DNA from: Tricholoma matsutake
Taxonomy: Eukaryota > Basidiomycota > Agaricomycetes > Agaricales > Tricholomataceae
NCBI GenBank assembly: GCA_026075535.2
Contig: AP026547.1
Span: 3,224,001-3,288,000 of the forward strand
Reading direction: 5' to 3'
DNA length: 64,000 nt
The translations under genes were made by a program, and so were the position numbers. The notes under the pieces are model-generated. The model saw only the letters and a program-made list of their open reading frames with translations. It made no database searches and was not told where the DNA came from. This document shows positions 2,428 through 32,303 of this stretch, one piece after another. The number at the start of each line of letters is the position of its first letter. The first letter of the stretch is position 1.

Positions 2428-3161
2428 GAGGACCTGTTCCGTCTTGCACATGATGCTCTGGGACATTTCAGTGCGGATAAATTGTACACCGCTATCTGTA
2501 ACTGCTATTATTGGCCCAACATGTGGCGTGACCTCGAGAATGCCTATGTCCCTGGCTGTGTGCCTTGCCAACGAAACAAGAGCCCAACTGCAAAGGCAGT
2601 AGGCCCACTTCACCCTCTCCCAATTCCTGATGGATGTGGTGACTCTGTGTGCCTCAACTCTCCCTGAAGATCATGGGTTTAATTGCATCTTGACTATCAC
2701 TGACTGCTTGGGCTCTGATGTATGGCTGATCCCCACGCAGACAGACATCACGGCCCAGAAATTGGCAACAATTTTTTTTCAATGAGCAGTACTGTGAAAA
2801 TGGCCTGCCACTCAAACTCATATCTGACCGTGATAAACTGTTTGTATTGAAGTTCTGGAAGGCACTCCATGTGTTGACTGGAGTACACTTAAAGTTGTCC
2901 ACAGCATACCACCCACAAACAGATGGTTCCAGTGAGTGCACCAACAAGATGCTCAACCAATGTATCCATTTCCATATCCAACGTAATCAGAAAGGCTGGG
3001 CTCATGCTCTGCCACTCATCCATTTCAATATCATGAACACTGTGGATGCTTCTACAGGATTTTCAGGGTTTCAACTGCGCATGGGTCGGAGCCCACACAT
3101 CTTGCCACCTTTGATCCCCTTGTCCATAATGAGACCCCCCCTTGAGGACTGCCAAGCTTGA
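2428..3161 (+). pseudogene. gypsy pol fragment: integrase
   Basis: The HHCC zinc domain is visible between about 2440 and 2580 (HDALGHF, YYWPNM, CVPCQRNK). The catalytic core follows: LTITDCLGSD near 2690 gives the first Asp, ISDRDKLF near 2825 the second, and a Glu in SSECTNKM near 2935 the third. The DDE triad is thus still recognisable, but a stop near 2665 and a frame change near 2780 break the reading frame. Confidence 0.8.
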
Positions 3162-3206
3162 GCTATCTGTGAGTGAATACTTCAGGATGAACGAGAAGCA
3201 AAGGAC

Positions 3207-3725
3207 ATGCTCTTGACCAGCAAAATCACACAGGCTTTCCACACTAACAAGAAGCAAGGTGTTGAAGATGTGTTCAATGTTGGCAACAGGGTCATGTTGG
3301 CAACACTACACTGCCGGCAAGAATACAAGGCAGGAGACAAGAACCATGTCACTAAGTTTTTCTCTAGATTTGATGGCCCGCATACCATTACAAAAGCATT
3401 CCCTGACTCTTTTGTTTACACTCTAGACCTCCCTAACTCCCCAGACATTTGCCCCACCTTTCATGCTTCGCTGCTGAAATGGTTCCATGGGAATGATGGA
3501 GTCCTTTTTCCTTCACGTGAGCATCTGATGCCTGGGCCACTGGTCACCTTGGATGGGGTCGAAGAACACATGATTGAGAAGATTGTGGATGAATGGAGAA
3601 GAGGGCGTGGGATGCAATATCTTGTGTGCTGGGTTGGCTACCCACCTGACCACAACCAATGGATGCCACACCATGACTTTGACGATTGCAAAGTGCTGGA
3701 TAACCGGTTGCAATGTAGGGTTTAG
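3207..3725 (+). pseudogene. gypsy integrase C-terminus with chromodomain
   Basis: The first half has the GNRVMLAT/RFDGPHTI pattern of the integrase C-terminal domain. Residues 118-165 form a chromodomain: IVDEWRRGRG, YLVCWVGYPP and NQWMPHHDF keep the aromatic positions that read methylated histone tails in active chromodomains. In chromoviruses this domain directs integration to heterochromatin, which fits a window packed with nested elements. The frame ends at TAG in 3723-3725. Confidence 0.85.
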
Positions 3726-3902
3726 GGTCACATGGTAGCTTTTCCCACTGGGTTTTTGATGCACCCATCATGAAGGTTGATGATGTGATTGATTGTTTTA
3801 TTTTTATTTTTTTCCTTTTCCTTTGGATTATTGCTGGATAGCTTACAGATGCACATACTTATGGACATGAACACCCCCTTTCTTTTTTAAAGAGTGGGAG
3901 GG

Positions 3903-4140
3903 TGTAAGCATGGCTTACATTATCACATTGGTGACTTGTTTGTTATCGATAAAGAACCCCCCCATCTTTCCTTCTTTTTACCTTTTCACCATCTCATCTA
4001 TGACTAGTCAGTTACTTTACTCTCTAAGGAATATTATGCTGTGTCTTGTCACTCCATGTGATTGAGAAGTGAGTTGTAATATTCCATCCTTTCTCCTTTT
4101 CTAGTGTTTTCTGTCTTCTCCTCGAAGACAGGCTTCCAGA
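3903..4140 (+). repeat. Probable 3' LTR of the gypsy element, end unclear
   Basis: The sequence starts TGTAAGC straight after a purine-rich tract, and TGTAAGC/GCTTACA form a short inverted repeat at its start. It lies directly behind the chromodomain stop. I could not place its 3' edge: no matching 5' LTR is in the window, and it runs into a tRNA-like sequence near 4146. Confidence 0.45.
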
Positions 4141-4589
4141 TAGATGGGGCCTCGAACATGGGACCTCCAGAATAATATCGCAACACTTCAGTCTACTGCT
4201 CTCCCAGCTGAGCTTAGTGTTTTAAGGTCCAGTTCAGTCCAGTTTTTCAATCTCTAAGAGGGTTAACCAGTCCAGACCATGACCCTAAGCAACATAGACC
4301 ATAACCAAACCAGTAAAAACCAGTTCTATCAGTTCAGTTACGGTCCAAAAAACCGGTTGAAACCGGTTTTCCCCCCATTTTTTCACAGCTAACTAAATTT
4401 ATTTTTGTATACAAAATAAAATAAAGACATAAACACCCTGCGAGCAGTTGCTCGCAGCGGTGCAGTGTAATTACATAGCGAATGAAAATTTGAAAATGAA
4501 AATGAAAAGAAATAACCATCTCGCATTTGTAGCGAGGGTGGGGTGCTGCTGCTCATCGCCTGTCGTTCATTAGCCTGGTTCACACCATT

Positions 4590-4830
4590 GGGCATTCCCG
4601 TTCCCCATTGTTCATTGTTCCTGTTCATTGTTCCCCATTCTTGGTCATTCCCCACCATTTGTCGTTCCCATTCCCCCCTGTTCATCGTTCCCATTCCCTG
4701 CTGTTCTTTGTCCCCTGCTGTTCTTCGTTCCCTGCCATTCTTCGTTCCCCGCCACCATCATTTCCTGCAATTTGTCATCTGTCATTTGTCAGCCTGGTTC
4801 CCCCCGTTCGTCATTCCCTGCTATTCATCA
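4590..4830. repeat. Degenerate TTC/CCC simple repeat
   Basis: Imperfect tandem words such as GTTCATTGTTCCC and TTCGTTCCC fill this stretch inside the hAT-like element. Reading frames through it are open only because the repeat lacks stops. Confidence 0.7.
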
Positions 4831-5058
4831 TAGGCACCATTCATTGTCATCAGCACCTCCATATCCCCCTATGAGCAGTGGCTCGCAGGCAGGGTGGTGG
4901 CGCTGTGTGATGTGGCATCTCCAAGTCATTGTTGTCCAGAAACAGGGTCCGTTGCAGCCCTGTGAGCAGAGGCTCACAGCGGCGGCATAGGGCACAGGTA
5001 GGGGTCATTGTTAACAGGAAAGAAGAAATATTAGTTAGTTCATTAGTAAAAGACACAG

Positions 5059-5267
5059 CTGGGGCTGGCCTGTGTTTCCCATGAAAACACAGGCCTCGGA
5101 AACATGTTTTGTGACTTTGATGTGTGTTTCCTTGAGAAACACCTTATGTAAGCACTGCCAAAAAGGTGATTACATAATGGTTATCCCAAGGAAACATGGA
5201 TTAGAGGTCACAAAACATGTTTCCGAGACCTGTGTTTCGCATGGAAACACAGGTCAGCCCCAGCTGT
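5059..5267. repeat. Foldback element inside the hAT-like element
   Basis: The two halves are inverted copies. The left half starts CAGCTGGGGCTGGCCTGTG and the right half ends with nearly the complement; both continue through a GGAAACATGTTTTGTGAC block. The arms are about 100 bp with few mismatches, so the piece could fold into one long hairpin. No target duplication could be fixed. Confidence 0.7.
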
Positions 5268-5300
5268 GAGAAAGAAATCAAATAAAAAAACATACCCAGA

Positions 5301-5333
5301 GGGCCCAAACGACGTTAGTTGGTCGTTTGGGCC
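5301..5333 (-). repeat. M1 palindrome with intron-like unit (minus copy)
   Basis: GGGCCCAAACGAC and GTCGTTTGGGCC form a perfect stem around an 8-base loop. On the minus strand the palindrome is followed within about 8 bases by GTATGTTTTTTT and, about 30 bases on, CTCACAG, the same order as in the other M1 copies listed here. Confidence 0.7.
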
Positions 5334-5842
5334 TGCTTTGTGTTTGTTGGTTTGTGTGGTCAGGTGGTGATGCAGCATCTCAAATGCCACTTTTATTTTT
5401 TGTGTAAACAAACATGTCAACATGTGATGTAAATGATGCATATGTGTTCATTTACTGTGAACAAATAAGGCAACATATAAACCCAACCAATTTGCATGGC
5501 ATCCCCCCTCATAAGTAGCTTATTATATATAATACATACATTAGTTTTATTATTTATAGGGTACATAATCTAAGTGTAAAAGACTGGTTACAACCAGTTT
5601 CAACCAGTTTTATAACGGTTTTCGAATGTTTTCAAAGCAAGTTAACTGGTAACCGAACCGCGGTTTCAGTTACCTACTATTTTCAGAAACTTGGACCAGA
5701 CCGAAGCATGGACCACGGTTCGGTCCAGTTCGGTCCTCGGTTTAGTCAACCGGACCTTAAAACACTAGCTGAGCTATGCCCCCAATCCATATAATCTAAG
5801 TTATGAGAGCTCTCTATAATACCCGTCGTAATACGTCTAGCC

Positions 5843-6852
5843 TTAGTTCTGAGGTTGTTGTTCTATAAGTATAAGTCGAGTCATTGCGGCAAACCCGCGA
5901 AGCTGTTCTGGAGCATATCGTTCATACACTGCGCATTGACCGTAAGCAATCTCGGCTACCTTTATCTAGTGCACGCATGTTAGAAAAGTTAAATACATGG
6001 GGCATCACTTACAAGAATGTCTGCAGTAAGGCCTTTAATGGACGAAGCAGAGCTTTGGAAACGATGCATGCGGTACGCAATATTATCGAGAGCTGACACG
6101 ACCAAGTCAGAAGCATTCTGCACAACCATTATTATCAACTATGACTAAAAAGGCAAATAATAAGAAATCACGTATAGTTCCGTATCGTACGGCCAGTCCT
6201 CACTCCCAAGAGCCACCAAGGGTTCACTCCGAGCTATAACTGGATCCAGAATCGCCTCCAAGGGGTGGGTAAATATCCGTGCGACTTCAGTTTGAGCAGC
6301 CTTTAGATGGTCGAGGACAGATGGGCGGATTAGGACCGCGACGACAGGAGTGACGATAAGCCGGTGAAGGGAGACGAATGGCTCGAGGAGAGCGACTGTG
6401 TGGATGTCTGGACAGTTTAAGGGAAGGCCAACTTCTTCGTAGGCTTCGCGAAACTAACATTGTATTAATATTGTCCTCAGTGGACGAAGTAGACAAGATA
6501 TCTCACTGCAGTCTCTAGAAAATCGATATCAGTGTCGTCTACCCTGCCTCCAGGAAGCGCGGTTTGCCCTGCGTGAGTCCGTAGTGCTTTGGACCGTGTG
6601 GTGAGGAGAACGCGGAGCTGTCCCGCACTCTCGTATAGGAGTACTAGGACGGCGGCAAGTTTAGAACGGGGTTGGGCCAAGTTGATGATACGAGGTTAGT
6701 CTTGTTTGTCACGAGTGATACTAAATTTGACTAACGGACAGATCATGTCGCTCTGCTCCATGCTTTAACAGTCGTTCTATGCATATACGTGTCCCTTCTG
6801 AGAAATGCTCTAGGGTTTCGTATGTTACTTGGGGAAGGTCGACGACGTTCAT
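5843..6852 (-). CDS. Nudix hydrolase, CoA diphosphatase (PCD1/NUDT7) type
   Basis: Known family role: hydrolysis of CoA or acyl-CoA to 3',5'-ADP and phosphopantetheine, often in peroxisomes. Exons on the minus strand: a tentative first exon 6852-6736 (ATG, 39 codons); one ending at 6507 with KLAAVLVLLYE, LLTTRSKALRTHAGQTALPGG; 6453-6172 with FREAYEEVGLP, LLEPFVSL and SEDWPYDTELY; 6117-6013 with YRMHRFQSS and IKGLTADIL; and 5965-5843 ending in TAA. Introns 6454-6506, 6118-6171 and 5966-6012 keep frame with GT-AG borders. The Nudix box (GGRV..REAYEEVGL) is split by the first of these and has its glutamates. No acceptor fits between 6735 and about 6680, so the first junction is unresolved. This is the only apparently intact host gene in the window, wedged between elements. 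Confidence 0.82.
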
Positions 6853-11035: not shown

Positions 11036-12060
11036 TGCCGCGTCCCTTCCCATAAGACCTCACCCCCTTCGTAAATGCGACCTCGACCACCACCATAGCC
11101 TCCAGGCCCTAAGTAAGTAATGTTTTTCTTACTGACAATACATTTTCTAGGTACAACGACAACGCACACGGCCCGTACACCTCCCCATTCAAATGGGATG
11201 GGTTCGTTTACGTCTAGCACGACCCCAGGCGGGTGCCGTGAGTGGGTAACCACTAGGTAAGCACCCGCTACTTCCGTATGCCCGTCATGCCACTACTACC
11301 TCGAAATAGGTAAGGAGTCCAGCACATGCTACTACCGCTGCGAGCCACTGCTCGCAGGGTGGACTGTTGGTAGACGACGGGACTGAGTGACGACAGGGAC
11401 AGGGACCACACGGCGCACAACAACAAGGAGGGAAGGACAGTACCATGACGACGACGGCCAACCGCCGCTGCGAGCAACTGCTCGCAGGGTGGGCGAGGAC
11501 AGACAACAACAACAAAACGAGGACGGGGGCGGGACGACGAGGTTCCACCACCACCACCCCACCCGCAACCGCAATCCCCGCCGCGAGCGACTGCTTGCGG
11601 GGTGGACACACGGGCAGAACAACAACAACGACGGCACAGAACGACAAAATGGGGCAGGGACATCAACGCAGACAGGGACGACCCAGCACCGCCCACCAAG
11701 CGACAACCACAACGGTGAGGAGATGACAAGGTAGGATGACGGCCACCACCACCACGCGACCCCCAACCGCCGCCCCGAGCAACCGCTCGTCGGGTGGAAA
11801 CAGGGAGAAACGAGGACAGGGACGACGGGGAGAGGGAGCAGGCGCAACAACGACGACGGCACGATGGGGAGCGGGACAAAGACGAGGGGCAACGACGACA
11901 ACGATGGCAACAGGGACGACGGCAGCCGCATCATGACCCCTAGATGGATTTGTTTTTTTTTCCTTCTCATTTTTCTTTTCAGTTTCGATTAATACTGTTG
12001 TTGCCTTGCCCCCCTCGCATTTGGATGAGGGAGGTGGTTAGTTTTTTCATGTATATAATT
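11036..12060. repeat. Cluster of palindromic modules (M2, M3 x4, M4)
   Basis: This GC-rich block shares its parts with the insides of the hAT-like elements. M2 (CAAATGGGATG ... GGTAAGCACCC) lies at about 11189-11265. Four GAGCA..TGCTC palindromes followed by a GGGTGG or GGGGTGG tail lie at about 11339, 11467, 11582 and 11774. A CCCCTCGCATTT..GAGGGAGG hairpin lies near 12010. Between them are low-complexity ACGACGACA/CAACAACAA tracts that produce long but meaningless frames. No terminal repeats were found, so it is probably an element that has lost its ends. Confidence 0.7.
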
Positions 12061-12346: not shown

Positions 12347-14042
12347 ATGACTTTTTTTCATGGGGCCAGAGGAGTGCATGTGTCTGGGGGTCAGTTCACC
12401 GGCATTGGAGGGGATCAGAACTTGATCAACTACTATGCTAACAGCTGTGAGTACTAGCTTATACGGGTACTTATCTTTCTGACATCACTTGAAACCAGTG
12501 TCCATTTTTGACATCTTGAAGGAACACACGGCCCTCAACGCTGCTTATAACTCTAGGGAACGTGAATCGGAGCATGCATCTATTTGTCAAGAGGGCACAC
12601 GCGAGAGTGTCTTAAGAACGATATCGGCATGGTGCGGGGGAAATATCGGCTATCCGGTGTGCTGGCTTGAGGGACCTGCTGCCTCGGGAAAGTCTACAAT
12701 CGCGCATACCATCGCAAAGCAGTGTGACGATCATAATCGGCTTGCCTTCAGTTTTTTCTTCTCAAGAGGCAAGCATGATCGCAGCGATACGACCAAATTT
12801 GTCCCATCATTTGCATACCAGCTTGCCAAATCCATTCCTGCAATACAACCCTCAGTGCGGCGTGCTTTAGCTGAAGATCCCTCTGCTCCTCATCTGGGTT
12901 TGCGCAATCAGATCGAAAAGCTCACTCTCCATCCCTTCCTTACCATTCCGGGACGCATCCAGCCTAAGATCGTTGTTGTTGATGGTCTCGATGAGAGTAG
13001 CGACGATGATCTTATACAGGAGCTCATCCGGCTTCTTGTTGACACCACAAATCGCCTCCCCTTTCGATTCCTCTTTACCAGCCGGCCTGAGCATCATATC
13101 CGACAAATATTCGAAACCTCCTTGGTCAAACAGAATACTTATTTTCTCTTGCTTCGTGACTTCCGTGCTCACAGTGATGTTCGGAAATACTTACAACGGC
13201 ATCTTGCAGAAATACGTGATCAGAATGATGACGTTATGCGAGATGTGGCACGTCCTTGGCCATTAGATAAAGAACTCGACAGGCTGGTACACCAATCAGA
13301 TGGTCTATTCATCTATGTGTCAACACTTGTCAAATTCATGTCTGACAAGACAGACTATCCACAAGAAAGACTCCAGACAGCCATGATGACACATAGTGGT
13401 GTCGATCCTCTCTATCATCAGGTTCTATCCGCAGCTCAAAAGTTCAAGTACTCGGAACGAGTGATTGGCACCATCATATACCTTTGATATCCCCTTATTA
13501 TCCGTGAACTGGGACAGCTCCTACAGCTACCACTTGGCTGTATTCACCTAGCATTGCGTGGATGCCAGTCTGTTTTTGTGGTTCCTGATACTGATCAGGA
13601 GTTTGTTCGCCCATATCATGCATCACTAAGAGAATTCCTCACAGATTGTAACCGGGCAGGAGAACACTTTTTTGATCCCCAAGTGTACCATGTCTCCATT
13701 TTGGTTGACTGTTTCCAATGCATTGAGAATTATAAAGGTGGTGAACATCTACTCTATGCCTGCAATAACTGGTGTCATCACCTTTCATTGGCACTTTCAT
13801 ATGGTGCAACTGTTGGATCCATGAATGCCAAATGTGATGTGGTCATGCTCATGATGAAGATGGAGCAGGAGTGGATGAGACTTTGGATGTATGGATTGGA
13901 GAATTTTGATGGTGTGGATGAGATGTGTACAGATTGTGAATCAGTAATGGTAAGAATGACAGTAAGTCTTTTTGTGGAAAATTTGGAGTATTTATTAATG
14001 TATGCTGGACAAAGGAAATGTCTGTTCAGTGGAGAGATGTAA
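12347..14042 (+). pseudogene. NACHT-domain STAND NTPase (fungal NLR-like), one in-frame TGA
   Basis: Family role: signal-transducing NTPases linked to non-self recognition and programmed cell death in fungi. Exon 1 (12347-12446) encodes HVSGGQFTGIGGDQN, a head typical of basidiomycete NACHT proteins. A 52-nt intron (12447-12498) leads to exon 2. Walker A is GPAASGKST and Walker B is KIVVVDGLDES, followed by FLFTSRPEHHIRQIF (sensor region) and the winged-helix part. At 13485-13487 a TGA interrupts the frame (IIYL-stop-YPLI), yet the same frame continues intact to 14042 through FVRPYHASLREFLTD and YACNNWCHHLSLALS. Relatives have Arg at this position, so a CGA to TGA change is likely. No C-terminal WD40, ankyrin or TPR repeats are seen. 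It could be a recent pseudogene or an allele. Confidence 0.85.
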
Positions 14043-14077
14043 TAGGAAGTTCAAAGCACATACTGAATGTGGTACAG

Positions 14078-15730
14078 GTAAATGAGCAATTATACACATT
14101 GGAGCATTCTTGTTGATTTTGTTGTGATATTTAGAAAGTAGGTGCAGTGCTGACTTGGCAGAAAATTAGCTGAATATGCTATGTTTCATATTTGCATTAG
14201 CTGGTATGTGACAAACATGCTATGGATGCATATTTTATAGCTAACAACTGATTCTGCTTAGAGGGTAAGCCATTAAATGTAATTGATGGAAGAATGACTT
14301 GAAATATAGTAAATGGTATCTTGATACAGAGTGTGAGTATATTTAATGGATGTGATAGCAAAAGCACTTGATGATAACCATGTGGCATCTGCTGCTAGAA
14401 AGTAAGTGATTTTCTTTGACATATGCAGGACCACTTGCTGAGACTTTTGTGCTATCTGCCTATCTTTAGAGAGTAAGTGATTCTGTTTGGCATGCACAGG
14501 ACCTCTTGCTGATGGTTTTGTGCCATCTGCCTGTCTTTAGGGAGTAAGTGATTCTGCTTGGCATGTGCAGGACCTCTTGCTGATGGTTTTGTGGCATCTG
14601 CCTATCTTTAGGGAGTAAGTGATTCTGTTTGGTATGTGCAGGACCTCTTGCTGATGGTTTTGTGGCATTTACCTGTCTTTAGGATGTAAGTGATTCTGTT
14701 TGGCATATGCAGGACCTCTTGCTGATAGTTTTGTGGCATCTGCCTGTCTTTAGTATGTAAGTGATTCTGTTTGGTATGTGCAGGACCTCTTGCTGATGGT
14801 TTTATGGCATCAGCCTGTCTTTAGTATGTAAGTGATTCTGTTTGGCATGTGCAGGACCTCTTTCTGATGGTTTTGTGGCATCTACCTGTCTTTAGGATGT
14901 AAGTAATTCTGTTTGGCATGTGCAGGACCTCTTGCTAATAGTTTGGTGGCATCTGCCTGTCTCTAGATAGTAAGAGATTCTATTTGCAATATTCAGCTCC
15001 TTTTATTGATGGTTTTGGGTTATCTGGTTGTCTTTAGTATGTGAGTAATTTTTTTCCACACTCCGAGAACTATTTTATGATTTATTGTGGTACTTCTTCA
15101 GATTGTAAGTGATCATATCTGATATATGGTAAACCATATATTAATATCTAGTAGGGTGTATGTGACATGTTTGAAAAATACAGCAAGTTGTCTAATAATA
15201 CAATTTACCCTTTCTATTTCAGAATGTATGTATTTTAATTTAATTAACTTTCTCTCATCATTTGTTAACTAATGATTTATGCTTAGTGGGCATGTGTCAT
15301 TATTTTGCTCTGTGTTCCTCAAGGCTTCACTAATAGCCATACTTTGCATTTGATAGAAAGTAAGGACTGTCTTTTTTTCTGCTTCTGTTATTCTGCTTAG
15401 TGCATATTTTTTTGTCTGCTCAGGATGTTAGTAAAATATGTTCCTTGATATGTTCCTTGCATTCAACTCTTACTTGCATTCAACATAGGTTGTATGTTAT
15501 TAAACTGCTTTTTGCCTTCTTATTTTCACCTCCTGACTTGCCAGATTGTATGTTGTTTTGTAACATCCATTTTGAATCCAGTACTCAATTCTTTTATAGG
15601 ATGTGGGTTGGTCTTTCTTACTTGCTGCATTTCTACTGATAATCAGCAATTTGCCTGTTTCCAGCATGTATGTATTATTTTTAATTCAGATCATGCTCAA
15701 GCAATCTTTTTTTATTAATAGTTTTTGGGT
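14078..15730 (+). other. Stack of intron-like units separated by single triplets
   Basis: Beginning 36 bp after the NACHT stop, the sequence is a series of short units that start with a GT(A/G)(A/N)GT-type donor and end in (C/T)AG, with three bases before the next donor. The donors start at 14138, 14204, 14265, 14333, 14402, then every 71 bp to 15041, then 15105, (15158), 15226, 15290 (GC donor), 15360, 15427, 15492, 15548, 15603 and 15668. The in-between triplets are AAA, CTG, AGG, AGT, AAA, AGA, GGA, GGA, GAT, TAT and so on; only the 15158 junction departs (six bases, including TAG). Many units contain CTGAT, CTAAC or CTAAT at a branch-site distance. This could be transcribed as a chain of introns with one-codon exons, or it may be a repeat that merely carries these words. 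Confidence 0.6.
14402..15041 (+). repeat. 71-bp minisatellite, about nine units
   Basis: Nine successive units have an exact 71-bp period. Each opens GTAAGTGATTCTG, has TGCAGGACCTCTTGCTGATG in the middle and ends CTGTCTTTAG plus a triplet. Units differ by a few substitutions and no indels. It is the homogenised core of the longer intron-like stack. Confidence 0.92.
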
Positions 15731-16480
15731 GAGCTATTGTCTTTTACCTTTTTGCAATGTTTAATGTGGTTTGTTTCCAACAAATCCTTAGATCACACAT
15801 GAATTATTGGCTCTTGAAAATGTTTGCCCTGCTTGGAAGATGTGTTGTTTCTTCTCATTTGCTTTACACTTTACTCATTCATTCTTTTAGATTCTTTCAG
15901 AAATACAGAATACCTCTATGCCTACATTTCTGCCCATGTTTTTCATTCTATTTTTGCTGCAGTAGCTTTTCAATACTTACAGCATTAACTGCTTTCTTAT
16001 ACTATATTACTGTTACTTTTGATTTCTAAATCCAATTAGCAATACATTCTTAGGCATAGCATGAGTGACTTGTGGATGTGTCCATTTACCAACACCAATA
16101 TATTGCCTTTATTATGTCAAGCACACATTGATATGCTTGCAGGTCATCTGAGCACTGAACCACTGAAACTAAGGCTGAACATGGTCCAGGTCACCCACAG
16201 GTACCTGTGAGTTGACCTGTGGGAATGCCAATGTGTATGCACACTCACAGCTCCAGGTCATCCATGGGAATAGATCCTTGAGGATCCAGGTATCAGTTTT
16301 TTCAGGCACAATGTAAGCATGTTGCTTACTACAAAGCCTTGAGTTGTAACATATATATTCTGTCCAATATAATCAACTAACTGTTGATTATACTGCTTTT
16401 TAGTGAAAGGGTAAGTTGTAACTTGCTGCTTGGACAGAGCTGATCATCCTTACACACAAGTACTCATGCATGAACCATTG
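15731..16480. other. T-rich region without recognised gene
   Basis: The stretch from 15731 to about 16060 is T-rich and continues the base composition of the intron-like stack, but the triplet spacing is lost. A GC-richer patch at 16150-16300 has several CAGGTCA/ACAGGT words, possibly one end of a hAT-like element. No partner end was found. Confidence 0.4.
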
Positions 16481-19425: not shown

Positions 19426-20248
19426 AACTAGCTATTATAAAGTTTATTTCTGACACTCAAACTCACAACTTCATTTTTTCAAAGTAGATAATTAAGATCA
19501 AATTTTTTTAATTTAAGCCCATCCCTCGCAGGGGATGATTTGATTATATATATACATAAAACTAACCCCTCGCATTCAGTGCAAGGGGGAGGTAAAAATG
19601 TCAAGAAAAAAAAAACCCTCCCCCACAGACAAAATGGGGGAGGGGGAGGTGTAATAATATTAAATAATTAAAACTACAAAAAAACCCTCCCCACGCAAAA
19701 TGTGGAGGAGGGGGAGGGGACACGGGGTGGTGTGTCGTCGTCTCCTATCCAGGTGCCTAGGCATCGTTCCACCCACGTTCCACCCCATGAGCAGTTGCTC
19801 ATGAGGCTGGGGGTGGGTGGCTTGTCATTGTTGTCATTCCACCCGCAATCCACCCCATGAGCAGTTGCTCGTGAGGCTGGGGGTGGGTGGCTTGTCATTG
19901 TTTGTCGCTGTCGTCCTCCATTTGGATTTCTGTCTTTTTTTTTTTTTTGGGGGGGGGGGGGGGGGTCAGTGCGACATGGCATGTGTACGGGGGTTGGTGG
20001 GTGCTTACTAGGCAGGTATCCCCCTTCTGGGGTCTCCTGGCATCCCTCTGCACCCACCTAGCCCATGTCGACAGCCTCACATCCCATTTGAAAGGGGAGG
20101 AGGGGATTGGGTGGCTGTGGGCATGCGTTGCGCATTTTTCATTGCAGCAGGTCGTCCCCAGTAGTATATAGCCTAAAAAGCAATAAATTACAATTAGTTG
20201 TTTGATAAAAAGAAAAAGAAAAAAGAAAAAAGAAAAAAACTTATCTAT

Positions 20249-31678: not shown

Positions 31679-32303
31679 GAATGCGATGTTTCTAGAGGTA
31701 GGGGTTAAAACTTAGGTGAATGATGGTAGAGGAGTCAAAGTTGTTGGAAGGATGAATGAAGAGGTAGATGATGAAGATGAAGAAGTAGAGGATGATGTTG
31801 AAGGCAATGAGATAGGTGAAGGGAATAGTTGATGGTGACTCAGTGAGTAGATTCTGCTTCAGAAACAGGGATTAGGATATCTCCTGATTGTTCAAGAGAT
31901 TCAAAGGCATGGCGAGTGTCGATTTGAAGGTTTCTAGCTTGTGTTGGCCTAAGCTGGGAGATTCGAGATGGATTAGGTGATGAAATGATTTAGGGCCTTT
32001 TCGGTAGCTGGTTTGGGTACCCTGGGTTTGGTCAAGTTAAGCTTCCTAATATGTAAATAGCCAAGTTTTGATATTGTAACCTGACTCAAAGACCATTCGG
32101 CTGCATAAAGCCCAGGTTAGGATGTCACAAATAGTGTACACCACATTACGCATGTGTTTTCTCATCTACATCAATATAGTGTCCCTTGTGACCTCCTGCC
32201 TGTCTTTACTGCGACCTCCTGCCTGTCTTTACTCTTGTGACCTCCTGCCTGTCTTCATAGTCTCTCACTTACTTCTTATCTTTTCCTAATAACTCCTCCA
32301 AAA

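What the first reader, a model, noticed from the sequence alone, without database searches (positions are those of the whole stretch)
14078..15730. A run of about 24 intron-like units separated by exactly one triplet
Behind the NACHT gene, AG-NNN-GT junctions follow one another at 55-71 bp. The donors are GTAAGT, GTATGT, GTGAGT, GTAGGT, GTTAGT, GTGGGT and one GC (15290). Nine consecutive units are homogeneous at 71 bp, but the flanking ones have diverged so far that little besides donor, branch-like CTGAT/CTAAC and AG is alike, and the triplet spacing still holds. A plain repeat losing function should lose those signals at the same rate as the rest. If transcribed, it would be a chain of minimal introns with one-codon exons, or a recursive-splicing or intron-birth array. 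I know of no described example of this length.
Basis: seen in the sequence. Interest (0 to 1): 0.92.

Follow-up and report, generated by a model that had tools for sequence, protein, structure and literature searches.

The report
Immune-like gene built from one-codon exons
In the matsutake mushroom, the end of an immune-receptor-like gene appears to be cut into dozens of single-codon exons separated by tiny introns, with codons that vary far more than the introns, which looks like a way to diversify the receptor's tail; a similar layout has been reported in truffles.

Summary
In detail: window 14078-15721 is a chain of 24 AG-NNN-GT/GC junctions on one strand. Best reading: 24 one-codon exons between minimal introns at the 3' end of a NACHT (NLR-type) gene of Tricholoma matsutake. 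The triplets continue the frame of the preceding exon and run into a 7-nt exon and a terminal exon with a stop. Eleven related genes carry 5 to 63 such units; their ends spell KLRSK and Y(I/L)GxW(K/E)x(V/L)IDH with few changes. One metagenomic NACHT protein has a matching contiguous tail. Over 22 loci 1 of 567 triplets is a stop, 32.5 expected from position shuffles. Splice sites are more conserved than intron interiors; core codons are about five times more variable than introns. Arrays of the same layout lie in other NACHT genes and beside HET-like ORFs. No RNA was seen. Not without precedent: Tuber melanosporum NACHT-ANK genes are reported to carry dozens of alternatively spliced 3-bp exons. 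The window copy has an in-frame stop in its NACHT exon.

The parts
12347..12446 (+). exon 1 of the NACHT gene (conceptual model)
   Evidence: in frame with the later exons, GT-AG intron of 52 nt behind it; same N-terminus as the public T. matsutake model P0006
12499..13961 (+). exon 2, NPHP3_N/NACHT domain exon
   Evidence: Pfam PF24883 and PF05729 on the paralogues L015 and L017; PF24883 match of the window copy itself at G000:C10:3236618-3237085
13485..13487 (+). in-frame TGA inside exon 2: the window copy is broken in this assembly
   Evidence: P0006, 98% identical (491 of 501 aligned residues), is annotated without it
14015..14077 (+). exon 3, encodes EMSVQWRDVIGSSKHILNVVQ, phase 0 at its end
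   Evidence: 12 copies of it in the genome; same start in the public models P0002, P0004, P0006; the acceptor is taken from those models
14078..14398 (+). 5' conserved part of the array: introns with one-codon exons 14135-14137 AAA(K), 14201-14203 CTG(L), 14262-14264 AGG(R), 14330-14332 AGT(S)
14399..15037 (+). core of nine 71-bp units: one-codon exons starting 14399 AAA(K), 14470 AGA(R), 14541 GGA(G), 14612 GGA(G), 14683 GAT(D), 14754 TAT(Y), 14825 TAT(Y), 14896 GAT(D), 14967 ATA(I), each followed by a 68-nt intron
15038..15721 (+). 3' conserved part: one-codon exons starting 15038 TAT(Y), 15102 ATT(I), 15155 GGT(G), 15223 AAT(N), 15287 TGG(W), 15357 AAA(K), 15424 GAT(D), 15489 GTT(V), 15545 ATT(I), 15600 GAT(D), 15665 CAT(H), with introns of 50-67 nt
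   Evidence: matching tail in P0063
15290..15295 (+). GC donor (GCATGT) behind the TGG exon
   Evidence: GCATGT in 8 of 8 copies that hold the 3' end
15722..15728 (+). 7-nt exon TTTTTGG, donor GTGAGC
   Evidence: 7-nt exon in 8 of 8 copies
15792..15802 (+). terminal exon ATCACACATGA, stop codon 15800-15802
   Evidence: 8 of 8 copies end (F/I)(F/L)DH(M/T/I)-stop

Best explanation
The array is the 3' part of a NACHT (STAND/NLR-type) gene. Its pre-mRNA is spliced, probably one intron after another, by intron definition across 50-68-nt introns; 24 successive internal exons are single phase-0 codons, so each unit adds one amino acid to a C-terminal tail. Because these exons are 3 nt, skipping or gaining any number of units keeps the frame. 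The conserved ends (KLRSK and Y(I/L)GxW(K/E)x(V/L)IDH, then (F/I)(F/L)DH) frame a core whose units multiply by tandem duplication, with recombination that reshuffles codon and intron variants, and whose codons diversify much faster than the introns. The likely use is diversification of the receptor tail in single-codon steps. Shown: anatomy, frame, copy comparison, stop avoidance, matching contiguous peptide, splice-site conservation. Inferred: that splicing occurs at all of these sites, its order, the recombination, and the recognition function.
For: 24 of 24 window triplets are in phase 0 between a conserved exon and an in-frame terminal exon. Stops: 1 of 567 triplets at 22 loci against 32.5 +- 4.1 (minimum 18 in 5000 position shuffles); with repeated triplets of a locus removed, 1 of 267 against 11.6 (minimum 2). 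TAA is 0 against 16.9 expected while GAA, CAA and AAA, which I take to be alike for splicing, are 34, 31 and 32. The tail of P0063 (IGNWKSLVDHFFEH) matches the spelled peptide: score 63-69 for 6 of 7 tails, none of 5000 shuffles of each as good. At 15 flanking unit positions the 124 introns examined sit between 3-nt exons although their lengths vary from 50 to 72 nt (the parser looks for 3-nt exons only, but a lost junction would have shown as a gap). The terminal exon is kept in 8 of 8 copies. Core codons: heterozygosity 0.556 against 0.118 in the intron interior (131 units); no 3-nt stretch of the intron reaches the triplet's value in any of 6 array groups (two of these groups hold only 5 and 9 units).
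Against: No RNA was available: splicing is inferred. No second protein with a matching tail was found in two tail searches, and P0063's record does not say whether it comes from a transcript. No contiguous copy of the spelled peptide was found in the genome. The window copy carries an in-frame stop. Flanking triplets vary as much as intron interiors. Several other codons (CGT, GTA, CTA, TTA) are also rarer than base composition predicts, so not all codon bias is stop avoidance. A few junctions are missing (gaps of 134-142 bp in L010, L017, L027). The units are related by duplication, so counts are not independent.
Confidence: 0.86

Rival explanations
1. The array is one long intron (first donor to last acceptor); the inner sites are a decaying intron minisatellite or decoys.
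For: Homogeneous 71-bp core; the five public T. matsutake models read do not contain the inner exons beyond the first.
Against: Stop avoidance, a spelled peptide that matches P0063, conserved inner donors and acceptors at 15 diverged unit positions, exactly 3 nt at 24 window junctions.
Confidence: 0.07
2. Not exclusive with the best reading: the one-codon exons are real but only a subset is joined in any one transcript, so that one gene gives a family of tails, as reported for Tuber nank genes.
For: These exons are in-frame single codons, so every subset is translatable; precedent in Tuber as cited in papers read in passages.
Against: Nothing here shows skipping; the framing codons are conserved as if always joined.
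Confidence: 0.4
3. The triplets are variable because of a local mutational process (triplet-targeted change) rather than selection on the protein.
For: Unit pairs of family A with introns differing at 0-2 of 68 sites: 775 of 904 differ in the triplet, 213 of them at all three bases; in family A codon identity hardly depends on intron similarity (0.147 at 0-1 differences, 0.088 at 12 or more).
Against: Stops are avoided and changes are almost all amino-acid-changing (773 against 2 pairs in A; pairs not independent, and the third base in the core is always A or T). Recombination among units can give the same decoupling without hypermutation. In the HET-linked family near-identical introns do share codons more often (11 of 20 pairs at 0-1 differences, 56 of 438 at 12 or more).
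Confidence: 0.15
4. A non-coding tandem repeat with a variable triplet and no link to splicing.
For: Tandem structure; the core is called as a 9.3-copy, 71-bp repeat.
Against: Flanking units outside the repeat keep the same register and signals; 28 of 28 introns of the model have GT/GC-AG.
Confidence: 0.02

Closest known systems
Tuber melanosporum NACHT-ANK (nank) genes with 3-bp microexons (Iotti et al. 2012)
   Same: NACHT gene, dozens of codon-sized exons, proposed to diversify the C-terminal recognition part (as stated in PMC4986451, PMC3689799, PMC10197012, PMC9815663: passages read)
   Different: Ascomycete; ANK repeats in the protein; alternative splicing reported there. Here an agaric; no ANK found by Pfam in the NACHT exon of two paralogues; near-identical introns with hypervariable codons shown. 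Whether the truffle arrays share that I could not see: the paper is not held.
Schistosoma micro-exon genes (MEG)
   Same: Genes of short exons that vary the protein; exons of 3-81 bp (PMC10526429, abstract and passages read)
   Different: Mixed exon sizes, introns up to 5 kb, secreted proteins (same abstract); tandem intron+codon units are not mentioned in what I read
Podospora HNWD/HET-E WD-repeat NLRs
   Same: High-identity tandem units with few highly variable positions in fungal NLR C-termini (PMC9815663 and PMC4986451, passages read)
   Different: Units are protein repeats of about 42 residues, not an intron plus one codon
Introner-like elements and intron gain by tandem duplication
   Same: Multiplying short introns (starts of abstracts seen)
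   Different: Introners insert copies in many genes; here introns are head to tail with exactly one codon between them
One-nucleotide exon of Fusarium CYP621A
   Same: Extremely short exon in a fungal gene (PMC12940212, abstract read)
   Different: A single exon, not an array

Membership tests
NACHT/STAND NLR-type gene | NACHT/NPHP3_N nucleotide-binding domain | tested here: met
   PF24883 E 1.6e-27 and PF05729 E 7.5e-12 on the paralogue L015; PF24883 on the window copy
NACHT/STAND NLR-type gene | C-terminal repeat (WD, ANK, TPR) domain | tested here: not met
   no repeat family matched in the large exon of L015 or L017; the tail is the one-codon array instead. So I call it NACHT-type, not a complete tripartite NLR.
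Tuber-type codon-sized exon arrays | many 3-nt exons behind a NACHT exon | tested here: met
   24 in the window, up to 63 in L015, as sequence anatomy; splicing itself not observed
Tuber-type codon-sized exon arrays | alternative splicing of these exons | not testable with these tools
   no RNA data
Tuber-type codon-sized exon arrays | common descent with the truffle arrays | not tested
   no Tuber sequence was compared
Spliceosomal introns | GT/GC-AG borders, donor +5 G | tested here: met
   28 of 28 introns of the window model have GT/GC-AG borders; all 24 array donors listed for L009 have G at +5
Spliceosomal introns | branch-site word | tested here: inconclusive
   YTRAY in most copies at 13 of 15 flanking unit positions, in none at two; no chance control
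Introner-like elements | dispersed copies in many unrelated genes | tested here: not met
   107 matches of the core word TTTAGNNNGTAAGTGAT; the 100 listed all lie in this NACHT family. Only this word was tested.

The most novel reading that the evidence does not exclude
One-codon exon arrays are a recurrent diversification device of non-self-recognition type genes in this agaric: six array groups were seen (NACHT families A, B, C, D, a HET-linked family and the C9 array), in all of which the codon is the most variable part of the unit. In the largest, family A, codons have been turned over and recombined almost independently of the introns around them, so that a receptor tail changes by single codons under selection. 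Together with the truffle case this means that the device arose more than once or is ancient in fungi.
Probability: 0.45. Interest if true: 0.92.

Novelty: new variant of a known kind. Interest (0 to 1): 0.8.

Why it matters
It would make dozens of one-codon exons in a row an output of the spliceosome of a basidiomycete as well as of a truffle, and a test bed for the lower limit of exon size and for splicing order. The pattern of near-constant introns around hypervariable codons makes it possible to ask how a genome diversifies an immune-type protein one residue at a time. Public gene models of this family are probably cut short: 4 of the 5 T. matsutake models that I read end by reading into the second intron of the array, and the fifth is marked partial.

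Tried and rejected
Rejected: chance; antisense reading (longest antisense chain 4, at L031, and 1 or 2 at the other 34 loci scanned); the TAA triplets in my first listing, which are 4-bp offset artefacts of ACA or GCA followed by GTAAGT and vanish in the chained parse.

Exon-length control (0 to 9 nt) at 21 loci with arrays: 3 nt gives the longest or joint longest chain at 18. The 7-nt register, which I take for an artefact (3+4 from donors like GTAAGT), is longer at L017, L027 and L032 and equal at L021, L028 and L033; 5 nt gives 26 at L030 and 30 at L037 (GTGTGT donors).

A contiguous genomic copy of the spelled tail was sought and not found (besides 12 matches to exon 3 one weak match, E 0.4, which I took for chance after reading that locus for a chain). 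Two tail searches for more proteins like P0063 found none. A genome-wide pattern control with a 4-nt exon was asked six times and never answered; the tool's own backwards control gave 0 against 107, 1, 23 and 37. Of 97 NPHP3_N matches I looked behind 14 more with long ORFs, in stretches of 3 kb (L041 only 1361 bases): one clear array (L037, 34 junctions), one degraded chain (L040, 10), 12 without (chains of 0-3). The other matches outside the loaded loci were not examined.

Rows dropped: I left out leading or trailing junctions that I judged doubtful (2 each in L025, L027, L031, L011; 5 in L028; 3 each in L029, L030; 1 each in L037, L020, L021); none of them is a stop in the listings. In one search I used 8 of 8 copies with a 3' end, and 9 of 12 genes for the 5' units (left out: L017, which lacks one junction there, the truncated L020, and L021, whose first units differ). 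In one search seven tails were scored, not L015's; L013's tail scored 48 against a shuffle maximum of 49, and I had typed two of its letters wrongly (one search gives ILDHT).

Full report
WHERE IT IS. The window is part of contig 10 of a 161,040,721-base, 13-contig genome. Total and contig lengths equal those of the telomere-to-telomere assembly of Tricholoma matsutake (PMC10211490, passages read), and the closest public proteins with a name are T. matsutake models. P0006 is 98% identical to the window's conceptual protein (491 of 501 aligned residues).

THE OBSERVATION. The chain of 24 AG-NNN-GT/GC junctions is there. It is far beyond chance and the only long chain on either strand of the window. 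The core is a 71-bp repeat. The flanks are not part of that repeat, but keep donor, acceptor and the 3-nt step.

GENE MODEL. Exon 1 (12347-12446), exon 2 with the NACHT domain (12499-13961), exon 3 (14015-14077), 24 one-codon exons, a 7-nt exon (15722-15728) and a terminal exon (15792-15802) join into one frame that ends in a stop; all 28 introns are GT/GC-AG, 50-68 nt long. One in-frame TGA at 13485-13487 breaks the window copy; other copies (L012, L015, L017) have an open NACHT exon, and the public model P0006 is annotated through this place. The acceptor of exon 3 follows the public models and is not proven.

COPIES. Searches of the genome with this locus point to 12 related genes, three of them split by inserted sequence (C10:4.67 Mb in the array; C13:5.65 Mb and C13:5.73 Mb in the NACHT exon; my reading of the coordinates). 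All 12 carry at least part of the array. In the seven genes whose array runs from the 5' to the 3' conserved end without an insert, chained parsing gives 18, 21, 24, 27, 32, 40 and 63 one-codon exons (the 40 of L010 include one 142-bp gap where a junction is lost). The parser looks for 3-nt exons only. The ends spell KLRSK and Y(I/L)GxW(K/E)x(V/L)IDH with few changes (L013 has H for Y and ends IDD; L016 begins T); the middle differs in length and character: QHQHQQYGYSS in L013, E-rich in L014, R/D-rich in L015, GY-rich in L010. All 8 copies that hold the 3' end finish (F/I)(F/L)DH(M/T/I)-stop.

IS IT TRANSLATED? Three lines say so. First, stops: 1 of 567 triplets over 22 loci (21 genes if L011 and L012 are two halves of one, as their positions suggest) against 32.5 expected from shuffling codon positions within each locus. 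Second, P0063, a metagenomic NACHT protein 52% identical to the query, reads through the positions of the introns on both sides of exon 3 and ends in a tail that aligns with the spelled peptide; its record does not say whether its contig is a transcript, but it behaves like a spliced one. Third, splice sites evolve more slowly than intron interiors, and exon length stays while intron length changes. Against a simple picture: the flanking triplets themselves are as variable as intron interiors (0.113 against 0.117), so it is the signals and the step, not each codon, that are held.

VARIABLE CODONS. In 131 units of exactly 71 bp, mean heterozygosity is 0.56 at the triplet, 0.12 in the intron interior, 0.08 at the donor and 0.01 at the acceptor. 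The other large groups are similar: HET-linked 0.63 against 0.17, NACHT B 0.60 against 0.09, C9 0.55 against 0.13. In family A, pairs of units with introns that differ at 0-1 sites share the triplet in 53 of 361 pairs, little more than distant pairs (119 of 1356), and intron similarity does not fall with distance along the array. This decoupling is not general: in the HET-linked family 11 of 20 close pairs share the triplet (56 of 438 distant ones), in B 32 of 174 (0 of 117), in C9 2 of 9 (4 of 58), and in B neighbouring introns are more alike than distant ones (3.2 against 8.3 differences). In L015 all six CCA units have the donor GTATGT, and there are higher-order repeats (CCA-CCA-GAT). I read this as tandem duplication plus, in family A, frequent short recombination between units, with selection for change at the codon; a triplet-directed mutational process is not excluded.

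BEYOND THE FAMILY. Pattern and DNA searches and a look behind further NACHT matches found more arrays: a HET-linked family with 67-bp units (L025, L027, L028; PF06985 in the ORF behind L028's array, E 1.3e-8; no Pfam match in the three ORFs tested at L025 and L027), NACHT family B (L029, L030, L037), a C9 array without an identified gene (L031), and arrays behind NACHT exons on C6 (L032) and C13 (L033). Intron consensus sequences of A, HET, B and C9 are weakly alike in some pairings (z 4 to 7 against shuffled interiors; A with B only 2 to 3, B with C9 about 1), those of C and D resemble none clearly (z 3.2 or less). So either several origins or old, diverged descent. Arrays are not universal among NACHT genes here: 12 of 14 additional loci had none in the stretch read.

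MECHANISM. Short introns favour recognition across the intron, so a 3-nt exon need not be defined by itself. Since U1 at a donor would overlap the acceptor only 3 nt upstream, I expect stepwise splicing: each event fuses a codon to the growing upstream exon and exposes the next donor. This is inference from general knowledge, not shown.

KNOWN OR NEW. Published papers describe the truffle NACHT-ANK family with tens of alternatively spliced codon-sized exons, citing Iotti et al. 2012 (passages read in PMC4986451, PMC3689799, PMC10197012, PMC9815663; the original was not held). So the principle is known. New here, as far as ten literature searches show (listings only, apart from the papers named), are its presence in a basidiomycete, several array groups including one at HET-like genes, and the contrast of near-constant introns with hypervariable codons. 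Word searches for exon and NACHT inside three Tricholoma genome papers found no occurrence, and for intron only reference-list entries. The open-access library lacks most subscription journals, so this is not a proof of absence.

On going back to the calls I corrected counts and added results that cut against generality (HET-linked coupling, flanking triplets, missing junctions, exon-length ties).

Noticed in passing
L025 (G000:C1:2360500-2370400) 4333-5871; L027; L028: HET-linked family of one-codon exon arrays, 67-bp units, triplets spelling for example WTFFQWQIPIQLIPIPIPPQQIQN, upstream of a HET-like ORF on the same strand.
   Followed up: partly
L031 (G000:C9:2670500-2680000) 2504-5401: Array of 42 one-codon units, mostly of 72 bp, with no identified host gene; an ORF upstream looks integrase-like to my eye (no search made).
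   Followed up: partly
L032 and L033: NACHT exons followed by arrays with introns unlike those of the window family.
   Followed up: partly
L029, junction reading TGA: The only stop triplet among 567; other units of the same array carry CGA.
   Followed up: no
G000:C10:4670700-4676400 (L011, L012): A family-A array appears interrupted by a Copia-like element (polyprotein ORFs in L011, my reading, no search), which splits one gene in two.
   Followed up: no
window 32185-32255: A 23-bp repeat holds CTGCCTGTCTTTA, as at the 3' end of the array's intron, but ends in C instead of G and shows no AG-NNN-GT step; origin unclear.
   Followed up: partly
window 11330-11800: GC-rich stretch with repeated inverted words like GCGAGCNACTGCTCGC (by eye); a word of similar type lies in the repeat at 19767-19902.
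   Followed up: no
G000, 97 PF24883 matches: Large NPHP3_N/NACHT repertoire in this genome (some matches are pieces of one locus); many lie in ORFs near 198 aa and look like a separate subfamily.
   Followed up: no
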